Assembly: GCF_031624635.1 (NCBI RefSeq)
Contig: NZ_JAMQOQ010000001.1
Location: 62,001 to 126,000 of the forward strand
Origin: Halogeometricum sp. S3BR5-2
GTDB taxonomy: Archaea > Halobacteriota > Halobacteria > Halobacteriales > Haloferacaceae
DNA: 64,000 nt
Direction of reading: 5' to 3'
Shown: positions 18,782 through 30,076 of the stretch, in pieces
How the letters are laid out: every line of letters begins with the position of its first letter
Numbering within the stretch: the stretch's first letter is position 1
Notes under the pieces: model-generated
What the model was told of the DNA's origin: nothing
The model's database searches: none
The model's input: only the letters and a program-made list of their open reading frames with translations
Made by a program: the position numbers and the translations under genes

Positions 18782-18866
18782 GCGCGGGTAGCCAAGCCAG
18801 GCCAACGGCGCAGCGCTTAGGACGCTGTCCCGTAGGGGTCCGCCGGTTCGAATCCGGTCCCGCGCA
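18782..18866 (+). tRNA. tRNA-Leu (anticodon UAG)
   Basis: A complete 85-nt tRNA. The acceptor stem GCGCGGG (18782-18788) pairs with CCCGCGC (18859-18865), with discriminator A at 18866 and no encoded CCA. The anticodon stem CAGCG/CGCTG encloses loop CTTAGGA (anticodon TAG). The long variable arm CCCGTAGGGG marks a class II tRNA, and the T-arm is CCGGTTCGAATCCGG. Its 3' half is the attachment site of the element that follows; it remains intact because the element brought or restored this end. Confidence 0.96.
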
Positions 18867-18867
18867 T
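18813..18867 (+). repeat. Left attachment repeat (3' part of tRNA-Leu)
   Basis: A 55-nt segment from the anticodon stem to one base past the tRNA. It matches 28896-28950 at all positions except the ten bases of the variable arm: 16 bp identical (GCGCTTAGGACGCTGT), then CCCGTAGGGG against GTGGAAGCAC, then 29 bp identical through the acceptor end. This is the attL side, next to the integrase. Confidence 0.85.
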
Positions 18868-18916
18868 CCGCGGCTTCGCCGCGTCTTGCGATTTTCACTT
18901 CGGCAGGAGACCCTAC

Positions 18917-20077
18917 ATGGAAGACCTGCCAATCACGCTCTCGCGCTGTAACGTTTTCACCAACGGGGAGTTGGACACCGAACGCCCCATCCCGGTGGTG
19001 CCAAAATCGCACGACGGCGTACTGAACGAGAAGCAATTCGTAGACTACAAAGACAGGCGTGTTCGATTCCTGTCATGGCTGTTGAAGGTTGGGAAGTACC
19101 CCGACAAGGCCGAAGGGTACTCGCCGTACACCGTTTACTCGACGGCGTACCGAACCGCGCGGTTCGACCTGTGGCTCTGGGAGCAGAAGAACGAGTACAC
19201 GTACCCGCCTCAATCCGATGACGCCGCCGCCTACATGGACTGGTTGGCGTTCTCCGACCAGAGTCAAGTGATGAAGGGGAAGGCGCAGGAAGGCCTCCAG
19301 CACCTCTCGAAGTGGCTCCACCACGAGTACGGCTACGACGAGTGGGAGTTCGAGTACACCTTTGACGGCTCCGGCGGCAACCACCAGCCGCAGGACTTCC
19401 TCACGCGTGAGGAGCGCCGTGCCATCCGACAGGCGGCCCTCAACGAGGGGAACATCCCCGCCTACGACTCCCTCACCGCAGAGGAGCGGAACGGGTGGAA
19501 ACTCTACATCTCGAACGCACTCGGGAAGGCGTACGACGAGGTAACGCGCGAGGACTGGGACGAGGTGAACGGGTGGGAAATCACCTCTCTCGTTTGGACG
19601 AGTCTCGACGCCGGTCTCCGTCCCAACGAGGTCCGCAACGCTCGGACGGAGTGGGTGGACACGAGGAACGGCGTTCTCCGCATCCCGAAAGACGAGTCCT
19701 CGAAGAACGAGGGCAACTGGACCGTCAGCCTCACCGAGCGGACCGCGACGGCGTTGTCTCGCTGGCTTGAGGAGCGCGAGCAGTACGAACGGTACGAGGA
19801 CACCGACACGCTCTGGCTAACGAGTCACGGCAATCCTCACGGCTCCAGCAGCCTTCGGAGACTCCTTCACCGACTCTGCGACCAAGCCGGTATCGAGACC
19901 GCGAATCGAAAGATGTCGTGGTACACGATACGGCACTCGGTGGGGACCTACATGACCAAGGAGCGGGACCTCGCCGCGGCGAAAGCCCAACTCCGCCATA
20001 AGAACCCCATGACGACGATGAAGTACGACCAAGTGCCGGTTGAGGACCGCCGTAGCGCCCTCGACAGGATGGGGTAA
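18917..20077 (+). CDS. Tyrosine recombinase (phage-type integrase)
   Basis: A 386-residue site-specific recombinase. The N-terminal part (residues about 35-140) is a SAM-like core-binding domain. The catalytic part contains the first arginine in SLDAGLRPNEVRNAR (about residue 235), a Lys in the beta-hairpin IPKDESSKNEGNWTVSL, the box II RH in WYTIRHSVGTYM (about residue 344), a His in AKAQLRHKNPMTTMKYDQ, and a terminal Tyr in MKYDQV (near residue 374) as likely nucleophile. It begins 50 bp after the tRNA end and reads away from it, the standard arrangement for archaeal tRNA-targeting integrases. The zinc-finger gene follows after six bases. Confidence 0.93.
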   Translation: MEDLPITLSRCNVFTNGELDTERPIPVVPKSHDGVLNEKQFVDYKDRRVRFLSWLLKVGKYPDKAEGYSPYTVYSTAYRTARFDLWLWEQKNEYTYPPQSDDAAAYMDWLAFSDQSQVMKGKAQEGLQHLSKWLHHEYGYDEWEFEYTFDGSGGNHQPQDFLTREERRAIRQAALNEGNIPAYDSLTAEERNGWKLYISNALGKAYDEVTREDWDEVNGWEITSLVWTSLDAGLRPNEVRNARTEWVDTRNGVLRIPKDESSKNEGNWTVSLTERTATALSRWLEEREQYERYEDTDTLWLTSHGNPHGSSSLRRLLHRLCDQAGIETANRKMSWYTIRHSVGTYMTKERDLAAAKAQLRHKNPMTTMKYDQVPVEDRRSALDRMG

Positions 20078-20083
20078 AAACCG

Positions 20084-20643
20084 ATGACGCCGCAGACAAA
20101 CCCCCACCGGAACGCCGAGAAAGTCGTCAAGTGCCCTGTGGACGGCTGTGAGGCCGAGAAGTTGAGCCGCGGAATGCACCTTCACGTCCTTCGGAGTGCC
20201 GGTAACGGACACGGCCCACAGGGAGAGGTCCCCGAACATCTCGACTTCGAGAATCTGGAGGATGTCGGGACGCGAGAGGTCGAAGTCAACTACCCCGAGG
20301 AACGGAAGACCGAGTCGGTCGCTCGGCTCTGCCCGTACTGCGGGAAGCCGTTCAAGGGCAAGAACGGGGTGCTGATTCATCTCGGACAGGTAGAAGGCCG
20401 GAAGAACCACCTGCCAACGCCTCCGAGGTCCACGAGCCGGGTGACTTCCCCGTGGTCGAACTCGATGAGGCCGAGAACGTCGTCGCCGTCGTTGAGGGAC
20501 GGATACCGTCTTTGGCGGGGAACTGGCCCTACGAGGAGAGCGTCCCGGTCGAACGGGTCTACCGCCTCATCGCGGAGTTGCTGGCCGAAGGAAAACCCGA
20601 AACGGCGTCACGAGCGCGAAGCCTACTGCTCACCGACGAGTGA
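20084..20643 (+). pseudogene. Zinc-finger protein gene interrupted by a one-base frameshift
   Basis: The first frame gives a double zinc-finger protein: CPVDGCEAEKLSRGMHLHVLRSAGNGH and CPYCGKPFKGKNGVLIHLGQVEGRKNH (C2H2-like). At about 20420-20424 the frame breaks. Adding one C to the sequence AACCACCTGCC restores a continuation PANASEVHEPGDFPVVELDE through a plausible C-terminus ending SRARSLLLTDE and a stop at 20643. Without it, translation runs into Ser/Arg-rich nonsense. The joined protein would be about 186 residues and probably DNA-binding, consistent with control of the adjacent integrase (six-base gap). The break is a decay event or a base-call error in a C-run. Confidence 0.7.
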
Positions 20644-20671
20644 CTGAGAACTCGTTCTGAAACGACGGACG

Positions 20672-20693
20672 GGTGCGTGGGAATCCACGCACC
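20672..20693 (+). terminator. Stem-loop after the zinc-finger gene
   Basis: GGTGCGTGG (20672-20680) pairs perfectly with CCACGCACC (20685-20693) around GAAT, 29 bases after the stop. The downstream sequence is pyrimidine-rich (TATCCTCCGTTTGTCC). It fits a transcription end or mRNA-stabilising hairpin for the integrase/zinc-finger unit. Confidence 0.5.
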
Positions 20694-21372
20694 TATCCTC
20701 CGTTTGTCCTACCGGAACGGCGGGACACAACCGGGAGTCGGAGACCCCCGGATTGGGTGTCTCGTCGTCCGCATTAAGTCCGAGCAACAACTCTTTGCCT
20801 TCCTCCCTCACTCCGTTACTGTTGGACCACACTAAACCAACCCCGAAAATGGAGTGATTTTCGCCCTCAGTTCGTGACGGAACTTACTAACAAGCATGCG
20901 TTCGCCCGTTTGCTGGTGTAACAACCTATGGCAGTAACGAGTCCGGCGAAAGAGGTCGAGAGGAGGGCGAGTTGACGCAGATGTGTTTTGACGAATCTAA
21001 ACCATAATGTCTGATAGACTGGACAAATGTCAAAATTGCTTTAGAGCAGAGAATCCTCCATTCCGCCGACCCTCTCCAAACGAAAATCGCCGAAGCCCTG
21101 TGCGGCCACGAGAGCGGTTCTTTTGCGACAGATGATGGATGCCACTCACAACTTGCAAAAACCGATTCTGAAGGCCATCAGGGGCCTTAAAATGGAACCT
21201 GGCCGTTTGTCTCAGCCCCTACTCGCTCTGGCCGCTAAGATGGAGGCATTTTCCTGCCTGCTTATCGCGTGACTCGTACTCTATTAACCGTCTCTCCTTG
21301 AAGAACCTACTCGTTGTGGGAACGAGTTTTGAAGGCGTTACAGAATGGCGGGGTCATCGGATGGTTACTCAA

Positions 21373-21404
21373 GGGGGGACTACAGGGGGGATACTACTAC
21401 AGGG
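21373..21404 (+). repeat. G-run / ACTACA repeat cluster 1
   Basis: Six G, ACTACA, six G, ATACTACTACA, three G. ACTACAGGG occurs twice within 26 bp. It resembles the G-run cluster 110 bp further on (21513-21558), where TACTACTACGGGG appears. Iteron-like or quadruplex-prone DNA is possible. Confidence 0.5.
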
Positions 21405-21512
21405 TATCAACTCGTTGTTCCTATCCGATGAGGGCCGCCTTTAGAGTACGTTAGTGTAAACACGTCTTTCTCTACAGTATCGAACTACGTGCTGTAAGAA
21501 CGGTAATGAAAC

Positions 21513-21558
21513 ACGGGGTAGTCCACGAGGGGAAACCCTACGGGGTACTACTACGGGG
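21513..21558 (+). repeat. G-run cluster 2 (four GGGG runs in 44 bp)
   Basis: Runs of GGGG at 21515, 21529, 21542 and 21555. ACGGGGTA occurs at 21513 and 21540, and CTACGGGG at 21538 and 21551. Four G4 runs at short spacing meet the usual pattern for an intramolecular quadruplex on the plus strand. Confidence 0.5.
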
Positions 21559-21587
21559 ATGTGTGCCCCATGGATGTGTGCCCCATG
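21558..21587 (+). repeat. Tandem 15-bp duplication
   Basis: GATGTGTGCCCCATG is present twice without spacer (21558-21572 and 21573-21587). It directly follows the G-run cluster. Two copies only; either slipped replication or a pair of binding sites. Confidence 0.75.
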
Positions 21588-22066
21588 TTTGACACACCTG
21601 TACCGCGGCATTCTGCAATCGAGCCGCCGACCGAAGCGCGGGTGAACTGCTTGACGAAGTCGTTGCGTCCAATACCGCGTCACCACGGTATGTTATCTCC
21701 CGACACGGACAGAATTGTTTGGAAAACAACGTTCGTATTGGATTTTTGTGATTGAGTATGCTTTTGTCAAATTCAATCTTTTGCACAAATGTCTCCCTTC
21801 ATGCGATTCAACGAGATGAATTCAAATTGCCACCGTCCATAAAGGTGGGAATTCCGCCTCTGAGAAAAAGACAAATTTGGGTTGACTGGCTACCCTGTAC
21901 TGGGTTACTTTACCCGAACACAACAGTCCACTACGAGACACCCGCGCCGCCCTCATCGGCTGACTGCCGAATACCAAACGAGTGAGGAGCAACGTAGACG
22001 CCGGGGTATCCTGAAATCAGAGAAATTTGACAGACTTCCCGAGTTGACTCTCAGCAACTCGGCTAC

Positions 22067-22073
22067 TTTTATG
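22067..22073 (+). promoter_or_regulatory. TATA-like box for the restriction gene
   Basis: TTTTATG lies 26-32 nt upstream of the ATG at 22099, the spacing expected for a leaderless archaeal transcript. The inverted repeat GAGTTG-8 nt-CAACTC (22041-22060) just upstream could bind a regulator of restriction expression. Confidence 0.45.
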
Positions 22074-22098
22074 AAGGCCTATTGAGTTGAGGCCGCTA

Positions 22099-25000
22099 AT
22101 GGCAGACCCTTCGGCTCTACACGACTCTCTCCAAGCCATCGCCGGACAGGTCGATGGCGACATGAGCGAGCGTGATGTTGAAAACCTCTTTCTGGAACAC
22201 GGGTTCTACGACGCGCTCGACTACGAAGGAACAGGCACGGACATCCGTAGCGAGTTCACGCTTCCAGATGACCGGCGACCCGACTACATCACTCTCGATT
22301 CGAACGAAGCGGTCACGGCGGTCTACGAGTTCAAGACGACCGGTCGTGACCTCCCGCCCCACGAGTCGCAACTGTTCCACTACATGGACTACCTCCGTTC
22401 GGAGTTCGGCGTCCTAACCAACGGGGAACAACTGCGTCTCTACCGCCGAGGACAGGATTCTCCGATTCTGATTGTCTCGCTTGACTCCGCGACAGAAAGT
22501 GACGCCCGAGACCTCGTCAGTTCGCTCCAGAAACGGGAGTTCGACCTCACGAACCCGGACGACGTGAACCGATTTCTGTCCGAACTTGACCCGATTCCGC
22601 TCAACGAGGAGGCCGAACTCGGGCAGGCTCACTTCTTCGACACCTTCCGACTTGAAGATGGAAGCCCCTTCGCCGACCTCGTCACAGGGATGATGGACCT
22701 GCTCCACGAACTGCGCGACGAGGAGGAGGCCAAGTTCGTCAAAGGGGCGTACGACTTCTGGGAAGCGACCTACGCGAGCGAGCCGGATGAGGTCCCGGCC
22801 TCTTGGGACCCGTTCATCGACGGGAAGCAGTCCCTCCGTGATTTCATGTTTTGCTTGGAGAGCGGTCACGCCGTCCTCGCGCGGTTGCTACTGGCGAAGG
22901 CGACCGAAGACCACCAGTTTTTCGCGGGTACGGGTTACGACGGGATGGAGGACTACTTCCGCGGACTTCAGGGCTTCAGCGACTCAATCAACCTCGACGC
23001 CTTCCCGGTCGCCGCGGACAACCTCATCGACGACATGCAGGAACAGTTGGTCGAAGGGCTGTTCCAAGACGACATCTTCGTGTGGTGGACCGACGGCTAC
23101 GCGGAACAACTCTCCCGGTTGCACGAGTCAGGGGCGAACCAGTTCAAGGCCGTGGCCGAGGGGACGGGGTCGGTCGAACGAATTAGCGCGGCCACTCGGG
23201 ACCGCTTCAGTCGGGCAGTCGCCGAAGTGTTCCTCAACATCCTTCGATTCGATTTCTCCCACGTCGAAGGAGACCTGCTCGGCGACCTCTACCAGCGGTA
23301 CTTCGACCCGGAGACGCGGAAGGCACTCGGGGAGTTCTACACGCCGCAACCGGTCGTTGACTACATCATGGACGGCGTCGGCTACGACCGCGGCGTCTCG
23401 AACAGACGACTCATCGACCCCTCCTGTGGGTCCGGGACGTTCCTCGTGGAAGCCGTGGAGCGGTACATCGCCGACGTTGAACGCTACGAGGACAACCCCG
23501 ACTGGCAGGACAAACTCCGCGACCTCTGTACCCGCCCGCGCATCGTCGGTCTCGACATCCACCCGTTCGCCGTGCTGATGGCTCAGATTCGGTTCGTGGT
23601 CGCCATCCTCCCCGCCTACAGAAAAGCGAAGCAGGAGAACTCAAACTTCACTATCCGGCGGCTTCCGATTTACCGGACGGACTCGCTCCGGAACGAGCGC
23701 AAACTCTCCGGGGTGGATTTGGGTACCGGAGACGCGGAGACGTGGCAGTCGCCCCTCGATGCATGGGACGAGGACGAGAAGGAGGTCAAAGTCCCGGTCC
23801 CGCTTCCGGTCGAAGTGGACGAGGAAGACGGGGTCGAAACCGAGGACGGCTTCCTCGTTCGCCGCGTCCGTATGCCGCTCTATACGACGATTCGAGCGGA
23901 GACGAGCGTGAAGAACTTCGGGGAGTATTTCGCCGCCCTGCAAGGCGTGCTGGACACCGTAAAAGACCACATGGCCCAGTTCGGCGACACCACCGACTGG
24001 GATTGGACCTACGGCGGCGGCCTCGAACCTCGAATCAACCGGTACACCTCCCAAGAGTACGACGGCTTGGAGGAGTTCTTCGAGGAGTACGTCAACGACA
24101 TGTTGGAGAACGTCCGGTACCTCAAGGAGGAACACAACGACGGGCGGCTGTTCAAGATGTTCGAGGACACGGTGTTGGCCCTCGTCGTGAAGAACTACAT
24201 GGAATACGACTACGTGGTGGGCAATCCCCCGTACGTCCGAATCCAGAACCTCCCGGACAAGCAGAAGGCCATGATGAGCCGTCTGTACGACGCCACGACC
24301 GGGAACTACGACATCTACTGCCCCTTCTACGAGCGAGGTCTCGACTGGCTGCGGGACGATACGGGGAGACTCGGATTTATCACCCCGAATCAGTTCATGG
24401 TCACGGACTACGGCGAGGGTCTACGGAAGGTGATGCTCGAAGATAGCCGCATCAAGGAAGTGTACGACTTCCGCGACTCCGGGGTCTTCGAGGACGCGAC
24501 CAACTACCCCGCCATCGTGATTCTTGAGGACGAATCCGATGAGGCCGCCCGTGAGGAGAACCAGATTCGGTGTGTTCGGGTGAAGGCGAACACGGACGAT
24601 GGCGATGACCGCGAACTGGACGAGGCCATCATCGAGTCGGTACGCGACCACCGCGGCGAGCCGGGCCACTCTGACGAGTTCATCGACGTGTTCGACTTCC
24701 CGCAGGCGGAGTTGAACGAGGGGTACTGGTCGTTGATGCCTCCCGAGGAGTTGCAGGTATTCAACAAACTGGAGGAGCAGAAAGACGCGTTCATCGGGGA
24801 CGTGACCGATGCCGTTTTCCAAGGTATCCGAACCAGCGCGAACAAAATCTACGTTGTAGACGTGGTGGATGCAGACCGGGTAGACTCGGACGATGAAGGC
24901 AGTACTGTGACTATAGTCCCTACTGGCGAATCAAGAGAGTACGAAGTCGAAACAGACCTTCTCCGACCGTTCCTGAAAGGCAACGACGTTGAGCGATGGC

Positions 25001-26010
25001 GGGGTGATTGGTCCGGATTACACGTCATTTACCCCTATCACGTTGAGGAAGGAGAGTCAGGGGAAACAGAAGCAACCCTCTATTCAGAGGATGAACTAAG
25101 AGAAAACCTCCCTCTATCTTGGGACTACTTTAGCCATCACGAGGAGGCACTTCGGGGGAGAGAGCGAGGGAATTGGGAAGACAGTAACACGTGGTGGGAG
25201 TTCGGACGAACGCAAAATCTGGAGAAATTTGAGCAACCCAAAATCATCCAAGCCCACATCTGTCAAAATGCCACGTTCATGATTGACGAAGTAGGGACGT
25301 GGTATTTTACTACGGCGTACTCCGTGCTTCTTTCGGACGACTACCGTGACTTTACCGAGGAGATGGCCTGTCAACTCAACTCGAAAGCCCTCGACTTCTA
25401 CTTCAAGCACATCACGACGGTCAAGATGGGCGGATACTACGAGTACCGCTCACAGTACGTCGAGAAACTCCCCTGCGTGACCGACGACACCGCGGGCGTC
25501 TTCGGATTGATGCGCGAGAAAGCCGGGGAGATTGTGGACTCCATCGACCTCGACAGCAAGACCGACCGCTTCCCGGAGGCGTACCTCGGAGACTACGACG
25601 GTGAACTCGACTACATCACCTACGAGTGGCAGACTCGCCGCTACCCGGTGAGCGCCAACGTGCAGGGGGACGTTGGGGGGGATTTCACGGTGCAGGCCGG
25701 TCGCTCCGACACCATCAACGACCCTGCGATGTACTCCGAGGACCGCGAGGCCCGGAAGATGCGAGCCGAGTACGTCCGCGCGGCTGTGGACGGTCGGAAC
25801 GTCAAGAGCGGTGAGGAGACGACCATCCCGATACCCCGGAGTGACGCAGGCGTGGGGACGCTTCTCGACAGGCTCGAATCGGACCGCAGCCGAGTTGCGG
25901 AGACAGACATCGAGGCATTGGAGGCCGAGATTGATGAGGCTGTGTACGACCTGTTCGACCTCGATGAGGGCGAGCGCGAGGTCATCGAGGACTACTTGCA
26001 AGTGTTCTGA
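22099..26010 (+). CDS. Type IIG-like fused restriction endonuclease-methyltransferase (1303 aa)
   Basis: A single chain joining nuclease, adenine methylase and target recognition. N-terminal PD-(D/E)xK nuclease: P61-D62 followed by E77-F-K79 in VYEFKTT. A helical spacer leads to the methylase: GEFYTPQPVVDYI (about residue 417), motif I DPSCGSGTFLVEA (about 440) and catalytic motif IV NPPYVRIQ (about 708), the Eco57I-type gamma class N6-adenine pattern. The C-terminal 500 residues, with QGIRTSANKIYVV and LRPFLKGNDVERW, are the TaqI-like specificity region. The ATG at 22099 is preferred to an in-frame TTG at 22087. It might also belong to a phage-exclusion system such as BREX-type PglX relatives, but the fused nuclease argues for stand-alone restriction. 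Confidence 0.88.
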   Translation: MADPSALHDSLQAIAGQVDGDMSERDVENLFLEHGFYDALDYEGTGTDIRSEFTLPDDRRPDYITLDSNEAVTAVYEFKTTGRDLPPHESQLFHYMDYLRSEFGVLTNGEQLRLYRRGQDSPILIVSLDSATESDARDLVSSLQKREFDLTNPDDVNRFLSELDPIPLNEEAELGQAHFFDTFRLEDGSPFADLVTGMMDLLHELRDEEEAKFVKGAYDFWEATYASEPDEVPASWDPFIDGKQSLRDFMFCLESGHAVLARLLLAKATEDHQFFAGTGYDGMEDYFRGLQGFSDSINLDAFPVAADNLIDDMQEQLVEGLFQDDIFVWWTDGYAEQLSRLHESGANQFKAVAEGTGSVERISAATRDRFSRAVAEVFLNILRFDFSHVEGDLLGDLYQRYFDPETRKALGEFYTPQPVVDYIMDGVGYDRGVSNRRLIDPSCGSGTFLVEAVERYIADVERYEDNPDWQDKLRDLCTRPRIVGLDIHPFAVLMAQIRFVVAILPAYRKAKQENSNFTIRRLPIYRTDSLRNERKLSGVDLGTGDAETWQSPLDAWDEDEKEVKVPVPLPVEVDEEDGVETEDGFLVRRVRMPLYTTIRAETSVKNFGEYFAALQGVLDTVKDHMAQFGDTTDWDWTYGGGLEPRINRYTSQEYDGLEEFFEEYVNDMLENVRYLKEEHNDGRLFKMFEDTVLALVVKNYMEYDYVVGNPPYVRIQNLPDKQKAMMSRLYDATTGNYDIYCPFYERGLDWLRDDTGRLGFITPNQFMVTDYGEGLRKVMLEDSRIKEVYDFRDSGVFEDATNYPAIVILEDESDEAAREENQIRCVRVKANTDDGDDRELDEAIIESVRDHRGEPGHSDEFIDVFDFPQAELNEGYWSLMPPEELQVFNKLEEQKDAFIGDVTDAVFQGIRTSANKIYVVDVVDADRVDSDDEGSTVTIVPTGESREYEVETDLLRPFLKGNDVERWRGDWSGLHVIYPYHVEEGESGETEATLYSEDELRENLPLSWDYFSHHEEALRGRERGNWEDSNTWWEFGRTQNLEKFEQPKIIQAHICQNATFMIDEVGTWYFTTAYSVLLSDDYRDFTEEMACQLNSKALDFYFKHITTVKMGGYYEYRSQYVEKLPCVTDDTAGVFGLMREKAGEIVDSIDLDSKTDRFPEAYLGDYDGELDYITYEWQTRRYPVSANVQGDVGGDFTVQAGRSDTINDPAMYSEDREARKMRAEYVRAAVDGRNVKSGEETTIPIPRSDAGVGTLLDRLESDRSRVAETDIEALEAEIDEAVYDLFDLDEGEREVIEDYLQVF

Positions 26011-26072
26011 GATTAGTTAGAATTCGTTATGTTACCCAGAAGACACTTGTTGAATCGGCGACTAATTTGTGT

Positions 26073-26708
26073 ATGCCGGAACATTGGCCTCCAAACGGTC
26101 ACACAGAACCGAAAGAGTACAACCGAAGTGAACGCGCCGTTCTCGTCCTCGGGCTAATACTGACGGGGCTGTTTGGGTTCACTACCTTTCAGCCAATCGC
26201 GGCCGGGTCTGAAGCGTACGTCAATTTGTGGTTCGACTTCGCCGCGGGCATAGGGCTTTCAATCCTTCCTGCTCTCGTCGCAGGTGTCGCAATAGTCTTT
26301 GTGGGACTCGCAGTCCTGCTCTATGGTATCGTGACGCCGGTTCACGAGGGGATACACTACGGAGTTGCCAGTTACCTGAATCTGAACCCGGACTTCGGCT
26401 TTGACGAGATGTGGCGCGTAAAAAACCCTCGCGTAGTCGCACTCTCGACGGGTATTCCGGTCTGGAAGAACATGCTGATGCTCATCACACCGTTCGTTGC
26501 GATTGGGCTTGTCTCGGCAGGAGTCCTGCTTGTCGCTAACGGTCTCGTCGCGGGCGTCGCCGGAGTCGTGCTGTGGGTTAACTCGGCGGCGTCAGCACAG
26601 GACGTGTACCATTATCTCCGCCTCCTTCGGATGGACCCAAAGGCGAAGTTCGCAAACTTCGAGCGAGACGGAGAAATCAGGACGGAGTACGTCGTTCCGG
26701 AGCGGTAA
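26073..26708 (+). CDS. DUF3267 membrane zincin (putative metalloprotease)
   Basis: A 211-residue protein with four hydrophobic segments (about residues 22-44, 56-85, 133-156 and 160-175). Between the second and third is PVHEGIHYGVASYLNLNP: H91-E92-x-x-H95 is an HExxH zinc-protease motif at the membrane surface, as in DUF3267 and related site-2-like or YwbE-like zincins. No soluble protease domain is present. The ATG at 26073 is used rather than a TTG two codons upstream. It is placed between two restriction genes on the same strand with gaps of 62 and 159 bp, so it may be a functional part of the defence cargo or an unrelated passenger. Confidence 0.75.
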   Translation: MPEHWPPNGHTEPKEYNRSERAVLVLGLILTGLFGFTTFQPIAAGSEAYVNLWFDFAAGIGLSILPALVAGVAIVFVGLAVLLYGIVTPVHEGIHYGVASYLNLNPDFGFDEMWRVKNPRVVALSTGIPVWKNMLMLITPFVAIGLVSAGVLLVANGLVAGVAGVVLWVNSAASAQDVYHYLRLLRMDPKAKFANFERDGEIRTEYVVPER

Positions 26709-26867
26709 CGTAGTTCCTCCGTTCTGAATTTACGTGACCCGGATAGTTCTCGCTACCCTGAGAGGACGTGAGCGAGGCGTCATAATTGTATTTCATGAAG
26801 GCGGTACACCCACCAAACAGACTATTCAACAGAAATACCTATTACTGAAACCTGTTTTCAAAGGGTC

Positions 26868-28562
26868 ATGAGCGGAAGTCTCGGTATCTCTGCTAACGAA
26901 GATACCATCGAGAGCGTTCTCTCCCGGAACTATCGGTACACCGTCCCGGACTACCAACGCCAGTATTCGTGGGGGGAGGAACAATGGCGCGCCCTGTGGG
27001 AAGACCTCCAAGCGCTTGACAATGGAGAAACGCACTTTCTCGGTTCCATCGTCGTCATCGAACGTTCATCCGGACTGAACGAACTGGACCGACTCGAAGT
27101 CGTTGACGGACAGCAGCGAATGGCGACCATCCTTACGATGCTCGCCGTGATGCGCCAGAAGTACCTTGATGAAGGGGAGAGCGGGCAGGCCAACGCAATT
27201 CGAAGTGAATACCTGTTTGAACAGGACCTTGACCAGCAGGAATACCAGAACCTCACTCTCAGCCGTTATGACAATGACTCCTTCTCGGCGATACTCAACT
27301 GTAACTTCGGGCAGGTAGATAACGAGAATCTAAATGAAGCACTCGAATTTTTCGGCTCACGGATTCATGGCTTGACCGTAGATGAGACGGATACACTTAG
27401 AAAGCGACTGCTGAGTTCTGTCACACTTGTTTCAATCGAGTGTACTGAGGAGCAGTCGGCGTTCCGGCTATTCGAGACTCTGAACGAGCGGGGGCTGGAA
27501 CTTTCCTCGGTTGACCTCATGAAGAACCACATCTTCAGTATCGCCGCACAAGACGATGATGTCGATTACGAAGCGGTCAAGCAATCGTGGCAAACGACCG
27601 TTGACAACACGGTCCCGTATCTCAACAAGCCAAGCCGATTCTTCCGCCACTACATTATGTCGGCACCGGCTCCGGACCATCCCGACGACGTTTCCGATTA
27701 CAAACTTTATGACACCTTCCAAGGCATCATCAGCGATGTTCGGGACTCGGAAGACCTCACGCTCGAATCCTATCTGGCTGACGCGGCTAACCAGTCGGAG
27801 TTGTACCTACAGATAGTCCACGCGGACATTGACCGGTATGACCACGGAGGAAACGACGCCATCAACGAGAAACTGACTCATCTCCACCACATCAAGTCCG
27901 TTCAGGCCCGAACGCTACTCCTGCGTATCTTCCGGGAGTTCGACAACCCAAACAAGGTTATGGAAGCACTCGGTGTCCTTGAACGGTTCTTGGTTCGTTG
28001 GAAGGTGGCCAACTACGCGACGGGTGGACAGTTAGACCGCATCTATTCTGAACTCTGTTCGACCGTTTTCGATGAGAGCGACCCCGTAGAGGAGATGCGG
28101 GGATACCTCCGCGGCAAGTACCCGAGCGATGCCGAATTTAAGGCTGGTATTGAGAACAAGAGGGTCAAACTCAATAACCGGACAAAGTACATGCTCAAAC
28201 GAATTGAGGAAGTCCACTACAACGGAAATGTGGGCCGATTGGAAGACTACGACATAGAACACATCGCACCTCGCTCCGCGTACACCGCGACTCGCCATAG
28301 TGCGTGGGTTACCACGTTGAACACTACTCAGGCAACGTTTGAACAGCACCGGGACCGACTCGGGAATCTTACGCTCCTCGAAACAGACAAGAACATCCGC
28401 GCAAGCAACGACCCCTTCGAGACAAAAAAGAGCGAATACAGCACATCGGACATCGCTATGACTCGGTCTGTCGCAGAGACCTACGACAACTGGAACCTCA
28501 ACACCATCGAAGAACGAACTTCCGAACTCGCCGAAGTCGCCCTAAACATCTGGTCTCTTTAG
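26868..28562 (+). CDS. GmrSD-like DUF262/DUF1524 restriction protein
   Basis: The N-terminal DUF262 domain (residues about 10-250) has VPDYQRQYSW (26-35) and the nucleotide-binding D80-G-Q-Q-R84, the ParB-like NTPase signature of GmrS. The C-terminal DUF1524 domain has the HNH-type nuclease motif: D462-I-E-H465-I-A-P and N about 499 in RLGNLTLLETDKN. The two domains fused in one 564-residue chain match the GmrSD type IV family that cuts modified (for example glucosylated hydroxymethylcytosine) viral DNA. Its own AT-rich upstream region suggests separate transcription. Together with the type IIG-like gene it covers both unmodified and modified invading DNA. Confidence 0.88.
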   Translation: MSGSLGISANEDTIESVLSRNYRYTVPDYQRQYSWGEEQWRALWEDLQALDNGETHFLGSIVVIERSSGLNELDRLEVVDGQQRMATILTMLAVMRQKYLDEGESGQANAIRSEYLFEQDLDQQEYQNLTLSRYDNDSFSAILNCNFGQVDNENLNEALEFFGSRIHGLTVDETDTLRKRLLSSVTLVSIECTEEQSAFRLFETLNERGLELSSVDLMKNHIFSIAAQDDDVDYEAVKQSWQTTVDNTVPYLNKPSRFFRHYIMSAPAPDHPDDVSDYKLYDTFQGIISDVRDSEDLTLESYLADAANQSELYLQIVHADIDRYDHGGNDAINEKLTHLHHIKSVQARTLLLRIFREFDNPNKVMEALGVLERFLVRWKVANYATGGQLDRIYSELCSTVFDESDPVEEMRGYLRGKYPSDAEFKAGIENKRVKLNNRTKYMLKRIEEVHYNGNVGRLEDYDIEHIAPRSAYTATRHSAWVTTLNTTQATFEQHRDRLGNLTLLETDKNIRASNDPFETKKSEYSTSDIAMTRSVAETYDNWNLNTIEERTSELAEVALNIWSL

Positions 28563-28895
28563 GTTTGATTTCTCCGCGTGTCGGCTGTCTCTGAAAACAG
28601 GAGGAACGAAAGCAGCATGAAGGCCGGTATACCTCGGAGTCTAAACGTGATTCTGAAAAACGCAGTCAAAATCGACCCAATGACGCGAGCCGACTTACCA
28701 AAATGCGCGCTCGAAAGGCCCGCTCGTGTGCCAACCCGGACCCGCCCCAACGCCCCGGCCCTCATCGGATTGGTGCGAAAGGGAACAGCGACTGGGGCTG
28801 TCTCGTAGAAGCACTTTTAGCACTTGCCGTTTAGTTACGTACTGTCGAAGTGGAAATTGGGGATAGCCACCCAAAGTGCCGGGTAACGGCCCGAG
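28563..28895. other. Right-end non-coding stretch of the element
   Basis: Between the GmrSD-like gene and the displaced tRNA fragment. Reading frames on both strands (plus 28617-28808, minus 28559-28765) overlap each other, lack acidic haloarchaeal character and match nothing known to me. Sequence before 28896 (GGATAGCCACCC... GGTAACGGCCC) is faintly similar to the D-arm half of tRNA-Leu but cannot form an acceptor stem. Confidence 0.45.
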
Positions 28896-28950
28896 GCGCT
28901 TAGGACGCTGTGTGGAAGCACTCCGCCGGTTCGAATCCGGTCCCGCGCAT
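28896..28950 (+). repeat. Right attachment repeat (displaced tRNA-Leu 3' fragment)
   Basis: Copy of the tRNA-Leu 3' part. Identical to 18813-18867 over the first 16 and last 29 bases; the middle ten are GTGGAAGCAC instead of CCCGTAGGGG. The variable arm still forms a 3-bp stem (GTG/CAC for CCC/GGG). It has no matching 5' acceptor strand, so it is not a functional tRNA. Confidence 0.85.
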
Positions 28951-29038
28951 GGCTTCTCCGAACGTCAGTGAGGAGAGCCGTCGGTACTGCCGGATTCGAA
29001 GCAGGGAGCGTCGCGAGCGAAGCGAGCAGAGCGACCGG

Positions 29039-29061
29039 GGTTCGAATCCGGTCCCGCGCAT
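29039..29061 (+). repeat. Second, shorter tRNA-Leu 3' fragment
   Basis: GGTTCGAATCCGGTCCCGCG plus CAT: 23 bases identical to the end of tRNA-Leu and to 28928-28950. It follows a short GCGAGC-repeat stretch (29011-29030). It suggests an additional attachment site left by another integration at the same tRNA. Confidence 0.75.
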
Positions 29062-29254
29062 TTTGCAGGTCCCACCGTCGACCGAGAATCGAACCCGCGC
29101 TGTCGACACCGACGCCTCCGTCGGTCTCCCGCCGGCAGCCCCCGGTCTCCCGTTCTCGCGCTTCCCTCGACCCCGTTGTCTGACGCACGTCAGCCGATAT
29201 CACCTCCGAGAACGTCCCACAAGCCTTTTTCTCGCTGCAAGAGACGTGTAGTTG

Positions 29255-30076
29255 ATGGTGGCGCTATCGGACCTCCTCGACGACGTCGTAGCCGACGTGG
29301 ACGCGTTGTTTGTTTTCTCACCCAGCGGTTCGTACTACGAACGGTTCACCGACCCCGATTCGACCCTCGACACGCCCGTCGTGGTCGTCGCCCCCGAGAA
29401 CGCCGTCGACGCGGACACGTACATCGAACTCCCCTTGGAGTTCGACAACGTCCGCGACCGCATCCGCTTCGGTATCGAGGGGGCGATGGAAGCCGACGTC
29501 GTCGAGGAGGGTGACGTCGTCGCCTGCAGCGTCGCCGTGTTCGACGGCGACCAGGACGCGGTCATCCGCGTCCGCGTCGAGGAGAAGATGCGCTCGGGCA
29601 TCTACGAGTTGTTCGCCAACTCGCGGGCGGACCCCAGCGTCATCCGCGACGTGTTCGAGGTGGCCATCGAACTCGGCAAGAAGGGCCAGAAGGGCAAGCC
29701 CGTCGGCGCCCTGTTCGTCGTCGGCGACGCGGGCAAGGTGATGAACAAGTCCCGACCGCTGTCGTACAACCCCTTCGAGAAGTCCCACGTCCACGTCGGC
29801 GACCCCATCGTGAACGTGATGCTCAAGGAGTTCTCCCGCCTCGACGGCGCGTTCATCATCTCCGACTCGGGGAAGATAGTCAGCGCCTACCGCTACCTCG
29901 AACCCGCCGCCGAGGGCGTCGACATCCCGAAGGGTCTCGGCGCGCGCCACATGTCCGGCGCGGCCATCACCCGCGATACGAACACGACGAGCATCGTGCT
30001 CTCCGAATCGGACGGCCTCGTCCGCGCGTTCAAAGGCGGAAAGATGATCTTGGAGATAGATCCGGAGGACTACTGA
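29255..30076 (+). CDS. dacZ: Diadenylate cyclase DacZ (cyclic di-AMP synthase)
   Basis: Makes c-di-AMP from two ATP. The C-terminal DAC domain (residues about 125-265) holds D197-G-A in LDGAFIISDSG and R231-H232 in GARHMSGAAIT, the two catalytic signatures. The N-terminal 120 residues are the archaeal DacZ-specific domain. In Haloferax volcanii DacZ is essential and its product level affects osmotic balance. A CCTTTTTC box lies about 26 nt upstream of the ATG at 29255; the preceding in-frame TTG is not needed. The gene ends in TGATG shared with the MscS channel gene, so the two are translationally coupled. It lies just outside the integrated element. Confidence 0.93.
   Translation: MVALSDLLDDVVADVDALFVFSPSGSYYERFTDPDSTLDTPVVVVAPENAVDADTYIELPLEFDNVRDRIRFGIEGAMEADVVEEGDVVACSVAVFDGDQDAVIRVRVEEKMRSGIYELFANSRADPSVIRDVFEVAIELGKKGQKGKPVGALFVVGDAGKVMNKSRPLSYNPFEKSHVHVGDPIVNVMLKEFSRLDGAFIISDSGKIVSAYRYLEPAAEGVDIPKGLGARHMSGAAITRDTNTTSIVLSESDGLVRAFKGGKMILEIDPEDY

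What the first reader, a model, noticed from the sequence alone, without database searches (positions are those of the whole stretch)
22099..28562. Three-gene restriction cargo: type IIG-like enzyme, membrane zincin, GmrSD-like nuclease
The only substantial cargo of the element is a fused nuclease-methylase, an HExxH membrane protein and a DUF262/DUF1524 protein, all on one strand. The outer two would target unmodified and modified foreign DNA respectively. Whether the trio is a fixed combination has not, to my knowledge, been described.
Basis: partly seen in the sequence, partly recalled or inferred. Interest (0 to 1): 0.6.

Follow-up and report, generated by a model that had tools for sequence, protein, structure and literature searches.

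The report
Swappable restriction cargo on haloarchaeal element
A small piece of mobile DNA in a salt-loving archaeon carries a DNA-cutting-and-marking enzyme, a membrane protease and a second DNA-cutting enzyme; the two cutters recur together in relatives, but the three-gene set is a rare, swappable combination, not a fixed system.

Summary
The three genes are real, intact and on one strand. They are the only substantial cargo of a 10,083-bp tyrosine-integrase element in a tRNA-Leu gene, confirmed by empty sites in four congeners. Gene 1 is a PD-(D/E)XK / N6-MTase / TRD type IIG enzyme. Gene 2 is a PF11667 (DUF3267) S2P-clan-like membrane protease. Gene 3 is a DUF262-DUF1524 protein of the HEC-06/"Orf5" branch, nearest in the PDB to DndI.

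The trio is not fixed: 2 of 391 Halobacteria genomes have it (own; Halobellus captivus). The IIG enzyme is common (49 loci in the sample). A sibling element at the same site (G267) has integrase 98% and IIG 91% identical, but its TRD is replaced, and a different cargo segment sits where DUF3267+DUF262 lie here.

The outer pair does recur: IIG upstream of the DUF262 gene, same strand, in four genomes (0.01 expected by chance). An Eco57I-type methylase lies within 5 kb of 13 of 50 DUF262 loci (0.8 expected within 8 kb). The middle slot holds DUF3267, nothing, or an unrelated 329-aa gene.

Best reading: complementary restriction as in BREX+BrxU or type I RM+TgvAB, with DUF3267 an optional passenger. 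New variant of a known kind; "modified DNA as target" remains inference.

The parts
18868..28950 (.). integrative element (10,083 bp), inserted at the 3' end of tRNA-Leu
   Evidence: 23-bp att repeats 18845-18867 / 28928-28950; congeners have tRNA-Leu and the DACZ flank without the insert; in G331 (L148) host sequence runs on directly from the att copy
18782..18866 (+). target tRNA-Leu gene (its 3' end is the left att)
   Evidence: ARAGORN
18917..20077 (+). tyrosine integrase, 386 aa
   Evidence: PF00589 1.8e-18; 98% identical in G267 at the same site
20084..20647 (+). zinc-finger-like element protein; reading frame shifted near nt 20410-20420 relative to relatives
   Evidence: homologues in L090, L091, L111, L018
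22099..26010 (+). type IIG restriction-modification enzyme, 1303 aa: PD-X14-EXK (P61 D62 / E77 K79), MTase motifs DPSCGSG (440-446) and NPPY (709-712), C-terminal TRD (about 880-1090, nt 24736-25368)
   Evidence: motifs invariant or nearly so in 21 homologues and TRD replaced in the G267 copy
26049..28656 (+). exchanged cargo segment (DUF3267 + DUF262 genes); replaced in the sibling element G267 by 1,018 bp carrying a 317-aa ORF
   Evidence: homology blocks end at 26048 and resume at 28657
26073..26708 (+). DUF3267 (PF11667) S2P-clan-like membrane protease, 211 aa; H91 E92 H95 (nt 26343-26357) and distal D177 invariant in the five full-length homologues aligned
   Evidence: family assignment to the S2P clan from PMC13252029
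26868..28562 (+). DUF262-DUF1524 (GmrSD superfamily) nuclease, 564 aa, HEC-06/Orf5 branch; DGQQR 80-84, EHIAP 464-468, GNLTLL 499-504
26812..26867 (+). conserved upstream block GAACAGAAATRCCTAWTA, a probable core promoter that travels with the DUF262 gene
   Evidence: in five genomes homology starts about 55 bp before the ATG and stops at the stop codon; promoter role inferred
28896..28950 (+). right att: copy of the tRNA-Leu 3' half
   Evidence: 87% identical to 18813-18867

Best explanation
This is a small tRNA-Leu integrative element whose resident gene is a type IIG restriction-modification enzyme and whose downstream slot collects further defence cassettes. The IIG enzyme methylates adenines at its own sequence in the host and cuts DNA lacking that mark. 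Its specificity changes when the C-terminal recognition domain is replaced. The DUF262-DUF1524 protein, on a separate cassette with its own upstream block, is a nucleotide-driven nuclease that covers what the IIG enzyme misses, most likely DNA with modified bases, as HEC-05/BrxU does beside BREX and TgvAB beside a type I system. The DUF3267 protein is an S2P-like membrane protease that is optional and not part of the core mechanism. Shown here: element boundaries, gene identities, intact motifs, cargo exchange, recognition-domain replacement, recurrent IIG-DUF262 pairing. Inferred: enzymatic activities, targets, anti-viral role, promoter.
For: Empty sites. In the G267 sibling the IIG is 96-100% identical per 50-aa block in nearly all the protein (88% in one C-terminal block) but 48-56% within the TRD, and 26049-28656 is replaced by another segment. 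IIG and DUF262 genes adjacent on one strand in G000, G336 (Halobellus captivus), G196 and G321, in two families and more than one insertion context; chance expectation 0.01. An Eco57I methylase lies within 5 kb of 13 of 50 DUF262 loci, including 10 of the 14 at 54% identity or more; 0.8 expected within 8 kb. Several different Eco57I enzymes are involved (1,440-aa DrmMI-like in G063 and a similar one in G146, 1,286-aa in G011), which suggests repeated assembly. HEC-06 profile 7e-98; HEC-06 has antiviral activity in tests (PMC12988326). BREX+BrxU and type I+TgvAB show the complementary arrangement (PMC8565348, PMC11411939).
Against: No methylome or infection data. The clustering could be ordinary defence-island co-location; the expectation was for random placement, not for defence islands. 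Best solved relative is DndI (E 6.5e-17), not BrxU or GmrSD, so cutting of modified DNA is not certain. The DUF262 cassette has diverged less than its IIG neighbour (fourfold sites 69% against 44% identical to H. captivus), so the two do not move as one unit. Only one sibling element (G267) shows the recognition-domain replacement so directly.
Confidence: 0.57

Rival explanations
1. The genes are independent defence cassettes gathered at a chromosomal hotspot (tRNA-Leu / diadenylate cyclase) and do not cooperate; order and strand are a by-product of cassette exchange behind the IIG gene.
For: Cargo behind IIG varies: DUF3267+DUF262, 329-aa+DUF262, 317-aa plus an HSDR_N nuclease, or none. DUF262 and IIG have different divergences. 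Most IIG loci have no DUF262 neighbour (45 of 49).
Against: Same order and strand in four genomes, with repeated pairing of DUF262 genes with different Eco57I enzymes.
Confidence: 0.27
2. Self-mark coupling: the DUF262-DUF1524 nuclease reads the IIG enzyme's adenine marks as 'self', as SspE and DndI read phosphorothioates, and attacks unmarked DNA; the pair would be one methylation-gated system.
For: Nearest solved relative is DndI, then SspE-type proteins. The Tyr of PxYQR that aligns with the sulfur-sensing Tyr of DndI/SspE is present. No DndC in the eight genomes searched, so a phosphorothioate mark is unlikely and another mark would be needed. Recurrent pairing with N6-methylases.
Against: PxYQR is shared by nearly all haloarchaeal homologues aligned here, so it is not diagnostic. 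HEC-06 and BrxU work alone (PMC11411939). Most DUF262 loci have no Eco57I neighbour. BrxU seems not to recognise m6A (PMC8565348).
Confidence: 0.11
3. The three genes are one fixed three-component system in which the DUF3267 protease is an essential part.
For: Same order in Halobellus captivus on another element.
Against: DUF3267 is missing in two of four IIG-DUF262 pairs (no room in G196, another gene in G321) and its other relatives sit in unrelated contexts, e.g. plasmids, near McrBC or near a DUF1837-helicase pair.
Confidence: 0.05

Closest known systems
BREX type 1 + BrxU (HEC-05), E. fergusonii pEFER (PMC8565348)
   Same: A DUF262-DUF1524 nuclease beside an Eco57I-family adenine methylase (PglX); proposed cover of unmodified plus modified DNA
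   Different: Here the partner is a stand-alone type IIG enzyme; no BREX genes among the element's few ORFs; the protein belongs to the HEC-06/Orf5 branch and gave no PDB match to BrxU at E 0.01
TgvAB embedded in a type I RM cluster, V. cholerae VPI-2 (PMC11411939)
   Same: GmrSD-family restriction encoded with a modification-based system on a mobile island
   Different: TgvAB needs two proteins; here a single chain and a type IIG partner, in archaea
HEC-06 (Hma-embedded candidate 6)
   Same: Single-gene DUF262-DUF1524 protein, profile match 7e-98 over the full length
   Different: Found with a type IIG enzyme on an integrative element rather than inside an Hma cluster; the PADLOC 'Orf5' profile scores better (4e-153), and I could not find what system that name refers to
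DndI / SspE
   Same: Same two-domain architecture; DndI is the best PDB hit (6.5e-17)
   Different: They sense phosphorothioate marks; no DndC was found in the genomes searched
Haloarchaeal type IIG family including HVO_A0006 / HVO_A0237 of Haloferax volcanii (PMC4389544)
   Same: N-terminal PD-X14-EXK nuclease as in HVO_A0006; HVO_A0006 is likewise linked to integrase/transposition genes
   Different: HVO_A0006 is a fragment; this copy is full length with an exchanged recognition domain in a sibling
TmcP (PF11667) of S. aureus TMcin biosynthesis (PMC13252029)
   Same: DUF3267 with HExxH and distal Asp; S2P-clan membrane protease
   Different: No RiPP genes were recognised on this element; substrate unknown

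Membership tests
Type IIG restriction-modification enzyme | nuclease and N6-adenine methylase in one chain | tested here: met
   PD-X14-EXK at 61-79; DPSCGSG and NPPY; Eco57I 4.4e-33. The HSDR_N match (24.3 bits) is just under its cut-off (25.1)
Type IIG restriction-modification enzyme | C-terminal target recognition domain that sets specificity | tested here: met
   TaqI_C 961-1129; the same region is the replaced part in G267
Type IIG restriction-modification enzyme | methylates and cuts at a defined sequence | not testable with these tools
   needs methylome or purified enzyme
GmrSD superfamily (DUF262-DUF1524) | DUF262 with DGQQR | tested here: met
   GmrSD_N 1.1e-36; D80-R84
GmrSD superfamily (DUF262-DUF1524) | DUF1524 His-Me/HNH nuclease | tested here: met
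   GmrSD_C 4.4e-22; EHIAP and GNLTLL conserved in haloarchaeal homologues
Type IV (modification-dependent) restriction | cuts only modified DNA | not testable with these tools
   inferred from relatives; DndI/SspE behave otherwise
HEC-06 | full-length match to HEC-06 profile | tested here: met
   7e-98, residues 3-563 of 564; the Orf5 profile is better still
DndI/SspE phosphorothioate system | phosphorothioation genes in the same genome | tested here: not met
   no DndC (TIGR03183) match in 8 genomes incl. own; no positive control above cut-off, SspD not searched separately
BREX with BrxU | BREX genes around the pair | tested here: not met
   the element's long ORFs are integrase, zinc-finger-like protein and the trio only; the PglX model scores 148.6 against a cut-off of 400
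PF11667 / S2P-clan protease | HExxH plus distal Asp in membrane helices | tested here: met
   H91 E92 H95 D177 invariant in five homologues; predicted fold of low confidence, mean pLDDT 56
fixed three-gene system | trio conserved across genomes | tested here: not met
   2 of 391 genomes; middle gene absent or different in G196 and G321

The most novel reading that the evidence does not exclude
The IIG enzyme and the DUF262-DUF1524 nuclease form one methylation-gated system in which the nuclease reads the IIG enzyme's adenine marks as self, with a replaceable third effector in the slot between them (S2P-like protease, 329-aa protein, or none).
Probability: 0.1. Interest if true: 0.72.

Novelty: new variant of a known kind. 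Interest (0 to 1): 0.42.

Why it matters
It extends the 'restriction for unmodified plus restriction for modified DNA' arrangement, known from BREX and type I loci of bacteria, to type IIG enzymes in haloarchaea. It also shows a mobile element caught exchanging parts: same integrase and enzyme backbone in two genomes, but another recognition domain and another downstream defence cassette. That makes specificity switching and cargo exchange directly testable in a genetically tractable archaeal group. It removes the proposed fixed trio and leaves the protease as a passenger of unknown substrate.

Tried and rejected
Fixed trio: rejected by genome counts. Trio or parts in viral contigs: four scans found no relative; DUF3267 not in the phage collection. 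First genome-contig scan with DUF3267 found nothing; with the alignment it found only Halobellus captivus and two distant relatives. Structure: DUF3267 model pLDDT 56 with no PDB match at E<=0.001 (top E 0.89), DUF262 model pLDDT 33, both unusable for fold comparison. Phosphorothioate link: no DndC. RNA families in the element: none. Hidden gene in 20650-22090: comparison with G267 shows indels not in threes, so probably non-coding. Third att-like copy at 29039-29061 as an element end: rejected, since congeners without the element have similar sequence there. Literature search for DUF262 with Eco57I returned one paper, on Campylobacter, where the two genes are about 30 kb apart.

Full report
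OBSERVATION. Pfam gives Eco57I, N6_Mtase, TaqI_C and a weak HSDR_N for the first, DUF3267 for the second, GmrSD_N plus GmrSD_C for the third. The region is poorer in GC (0.53-0.60) than its surroundings.

THE ELEMENT. A tRNA-Leu gene (18782-18866) is followed by a tyrosine integrase (18917-20077) and a zinc-finger-like gene. The tRNA's 3' end recurs as a 23-bp perfect repeat at 28928-28950, inside a 55-nt copy of the tRNA's 3' half. In four species of the same genus the tRNA and the diadenylate cyclase gene lie close together without the insert; in G331 host sequence runs straight on from the tRNA copy. The element is therefore 18868-28950, 10,083 bp. A third att-like copy at 29039 is not needed: congeners without the element have similar sequence there.

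GENE 1. The enzyme has PD-X14-EXK (residues 61-79; the same spacing is reported for HVO_A0006 of Haloferax volcanii, PMC4389544), DPSCGSG and NPPY, with these motifs invariant or nearly so among 21 homologues. It is common: 49 loci at or above 50% identity were counted from the 391-genome search. The most telling relative is G267, with the same element at the same tRNA-Leu site (integrase 98%, IIG 91%). Per 50-aa block the IIG proteins are 96-100% identical for nearly their whole length (88% in one block near the C-terminus) and 48-56% within residues about 900-1050, the recognition domain, with 70-80% in the blocks on either side. That is a domain replacement, expected for an active enzyme whose specificity is under selection.

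GENE 3. The protein matches the PADLOC profiles Orf5 (4e-153) and HEC-06 (7e-98) far better than SspE (8e-22) or mREase_IV (4e-21). Its nearest solved relative is DndI, 9jfl (6.5e-17), then DUF262 proteins of 818 aa and SspE. It keeps DGQQR, EHIAP and GNLTLL. In five genomes homology begins about 55 bp before the ATG, with a shared GAACAGAAATRCCTAWTA block, and ends at the stop codon; I infer a core promoter that travels with the gene.

GENE 2. PF11667 proteins have been placed in the S2P clan of membrane proteases, with TmcP shown to need the HExxH and distal Asp (PMC13252029, preprint). Here H91, E92, H95 and D177 are invariant in five homologues. A close homologue (71%) was found only in Halobellus captivus; the others are about 28-40% identical. 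Those I could read lie in unrelated settings: plasmids, a provirus-like region, beside a McrBC pair, near a DUF1837-helicase pair.

IS THE TRIO FIXED? No. It was found in 2 of 391 Halobacteria genomes, and in the same two of 170 in the family. G196 has IIG and DUF262 with no room for a gene between; G321 has a 329-aa protein without a Pfam match above cut-off there; G267 has a 317-aa ORF plus an HSDR_N nuclease on the other strand and no DUF262; G024 and G193 have IIG without DUF262 or DUF3267 at the same site. In the window the exchanged segment is 26049-28656; the element's right end, 28657-28949, is 93-94% identical to G267.

IS THE OUTER PAIR MORE THAN CHANCE? IIG upstream of the DUF262 gene on one strand, with at most one gene between, occurs in four genomes, against 0.01 expected under random placement (in G321 the IIG gene is split over two contig ends). 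An Eco57I-family methylase lies within 5 kb of 13 of 50 DUF262 loci; 0.8 expected within 8 kb. Ten of the 14 loci at 54% identity or more have one. The partners are different enzymes, e.g. a 1,440-aa DrmMI-like protein in G063 with a similar one in G146, and a 1,286-aa one in G011, so the pairing seems to have arisen several times. Random placement is a generous background, because defence genes cluster. The DUF262 gene has also diverged less than its neighbours: fourfold sites are 69% identical to H. captivus, against 44% for IIG and 48% for DUF3267 (p 3e-10 and 7e-4); the latter two are close to saturation, so this shows separate histories rather than dates.

MECHANISM. Most likely the IIG enzyme marks self and cuts unmarked DNA, and the DUF262 nuclease covers viruses whose modified bases block it. 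The precedents are BrxU beside BREX (PMC8565348) and TgvAB within a type I locus (PMC11411939); [quoted passage not shown] The same superfamily also holds SspE and DndI, which are controlled by the host's own phosphorothioate marks (PMC11662687). No DndC was found in the eight genomes searched (no positive control above cut-off), so a sulfur mark is unlikely, but control by adenine methylation cannot be excluded. DUF3267 is best seen as an optional passenger with an unknown membrane substrate.

NOVELTY. The families and the principle of complementary restriction are known. New here, as far as the papers searched show, is the recurrent type IIG + HEC-06-like pair in haloarchaea and an element seen exchanging both recognition domain and downstream cassette.

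LIMITS. The 391 genomes are a sample; the searches score only a few candidates per genome; absence of DUF3267 in the named loci was also checked by gap size and gene content. No activity was tested. The structure predictions were too poor to use.

Noticed in passing
window 20084-20647: The zinc-finger-like element gene is shifted in frame near 20410-20420 relative to its relatives; its conserved C-terminal part lies in another frame (20452-20643). Real decay or sequencing error not decided.
   Followed up: partly
window 18782-30076: The tRNA-Leu / diadenylate cyclase interval is an insertion hotspot: IIG-bearing inserts in G000, G267, G321, G024, G193, in at least three families.
   Followed up: partly
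window 20650-22090: About 1.4 kb without a credible gene, about 55% GC, carrying short copies of CCTCATCGG also found near 28756-28773; possible recombination or replication sites of the element.
   Followed up: partly
L091:10440-11630: HSDR_N_2 nuclease-like gene (396 aa) on the opposite strand, near the IIG gene in 3 of 20 IIG loci examined (L091, L092, L102); a 16-bp overlap of homology blocks suggests a short direct repeat around it in L091.
   Followed up: no
L149:6001-12932: Haloferax alexandrinus plasmid: DUF262 protein (44%) followed by two tRNA-guanine transglycosylase genes, which could be DNA 7-deazaguanine enzymes.
   Followed up: no
L139:2306-8498: Haloplanus rubicundus plasmid: DUF3267 gene near a DUF1837 plus DEAD/DEAH helicase pair, which resembles Hachiman.
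   Followed up: no
L023:3543-7042: DUF3267 gene directly before an AAA_5 plus McrBC-like pair, same strand.
   Followed up: partly
L110:8018-9004: 329-aa protein between IIG and DUF262 genes in G321, no Pfam match above cut-off and no PADLOC match; a candidate unknown effector.
   Followed up: partly
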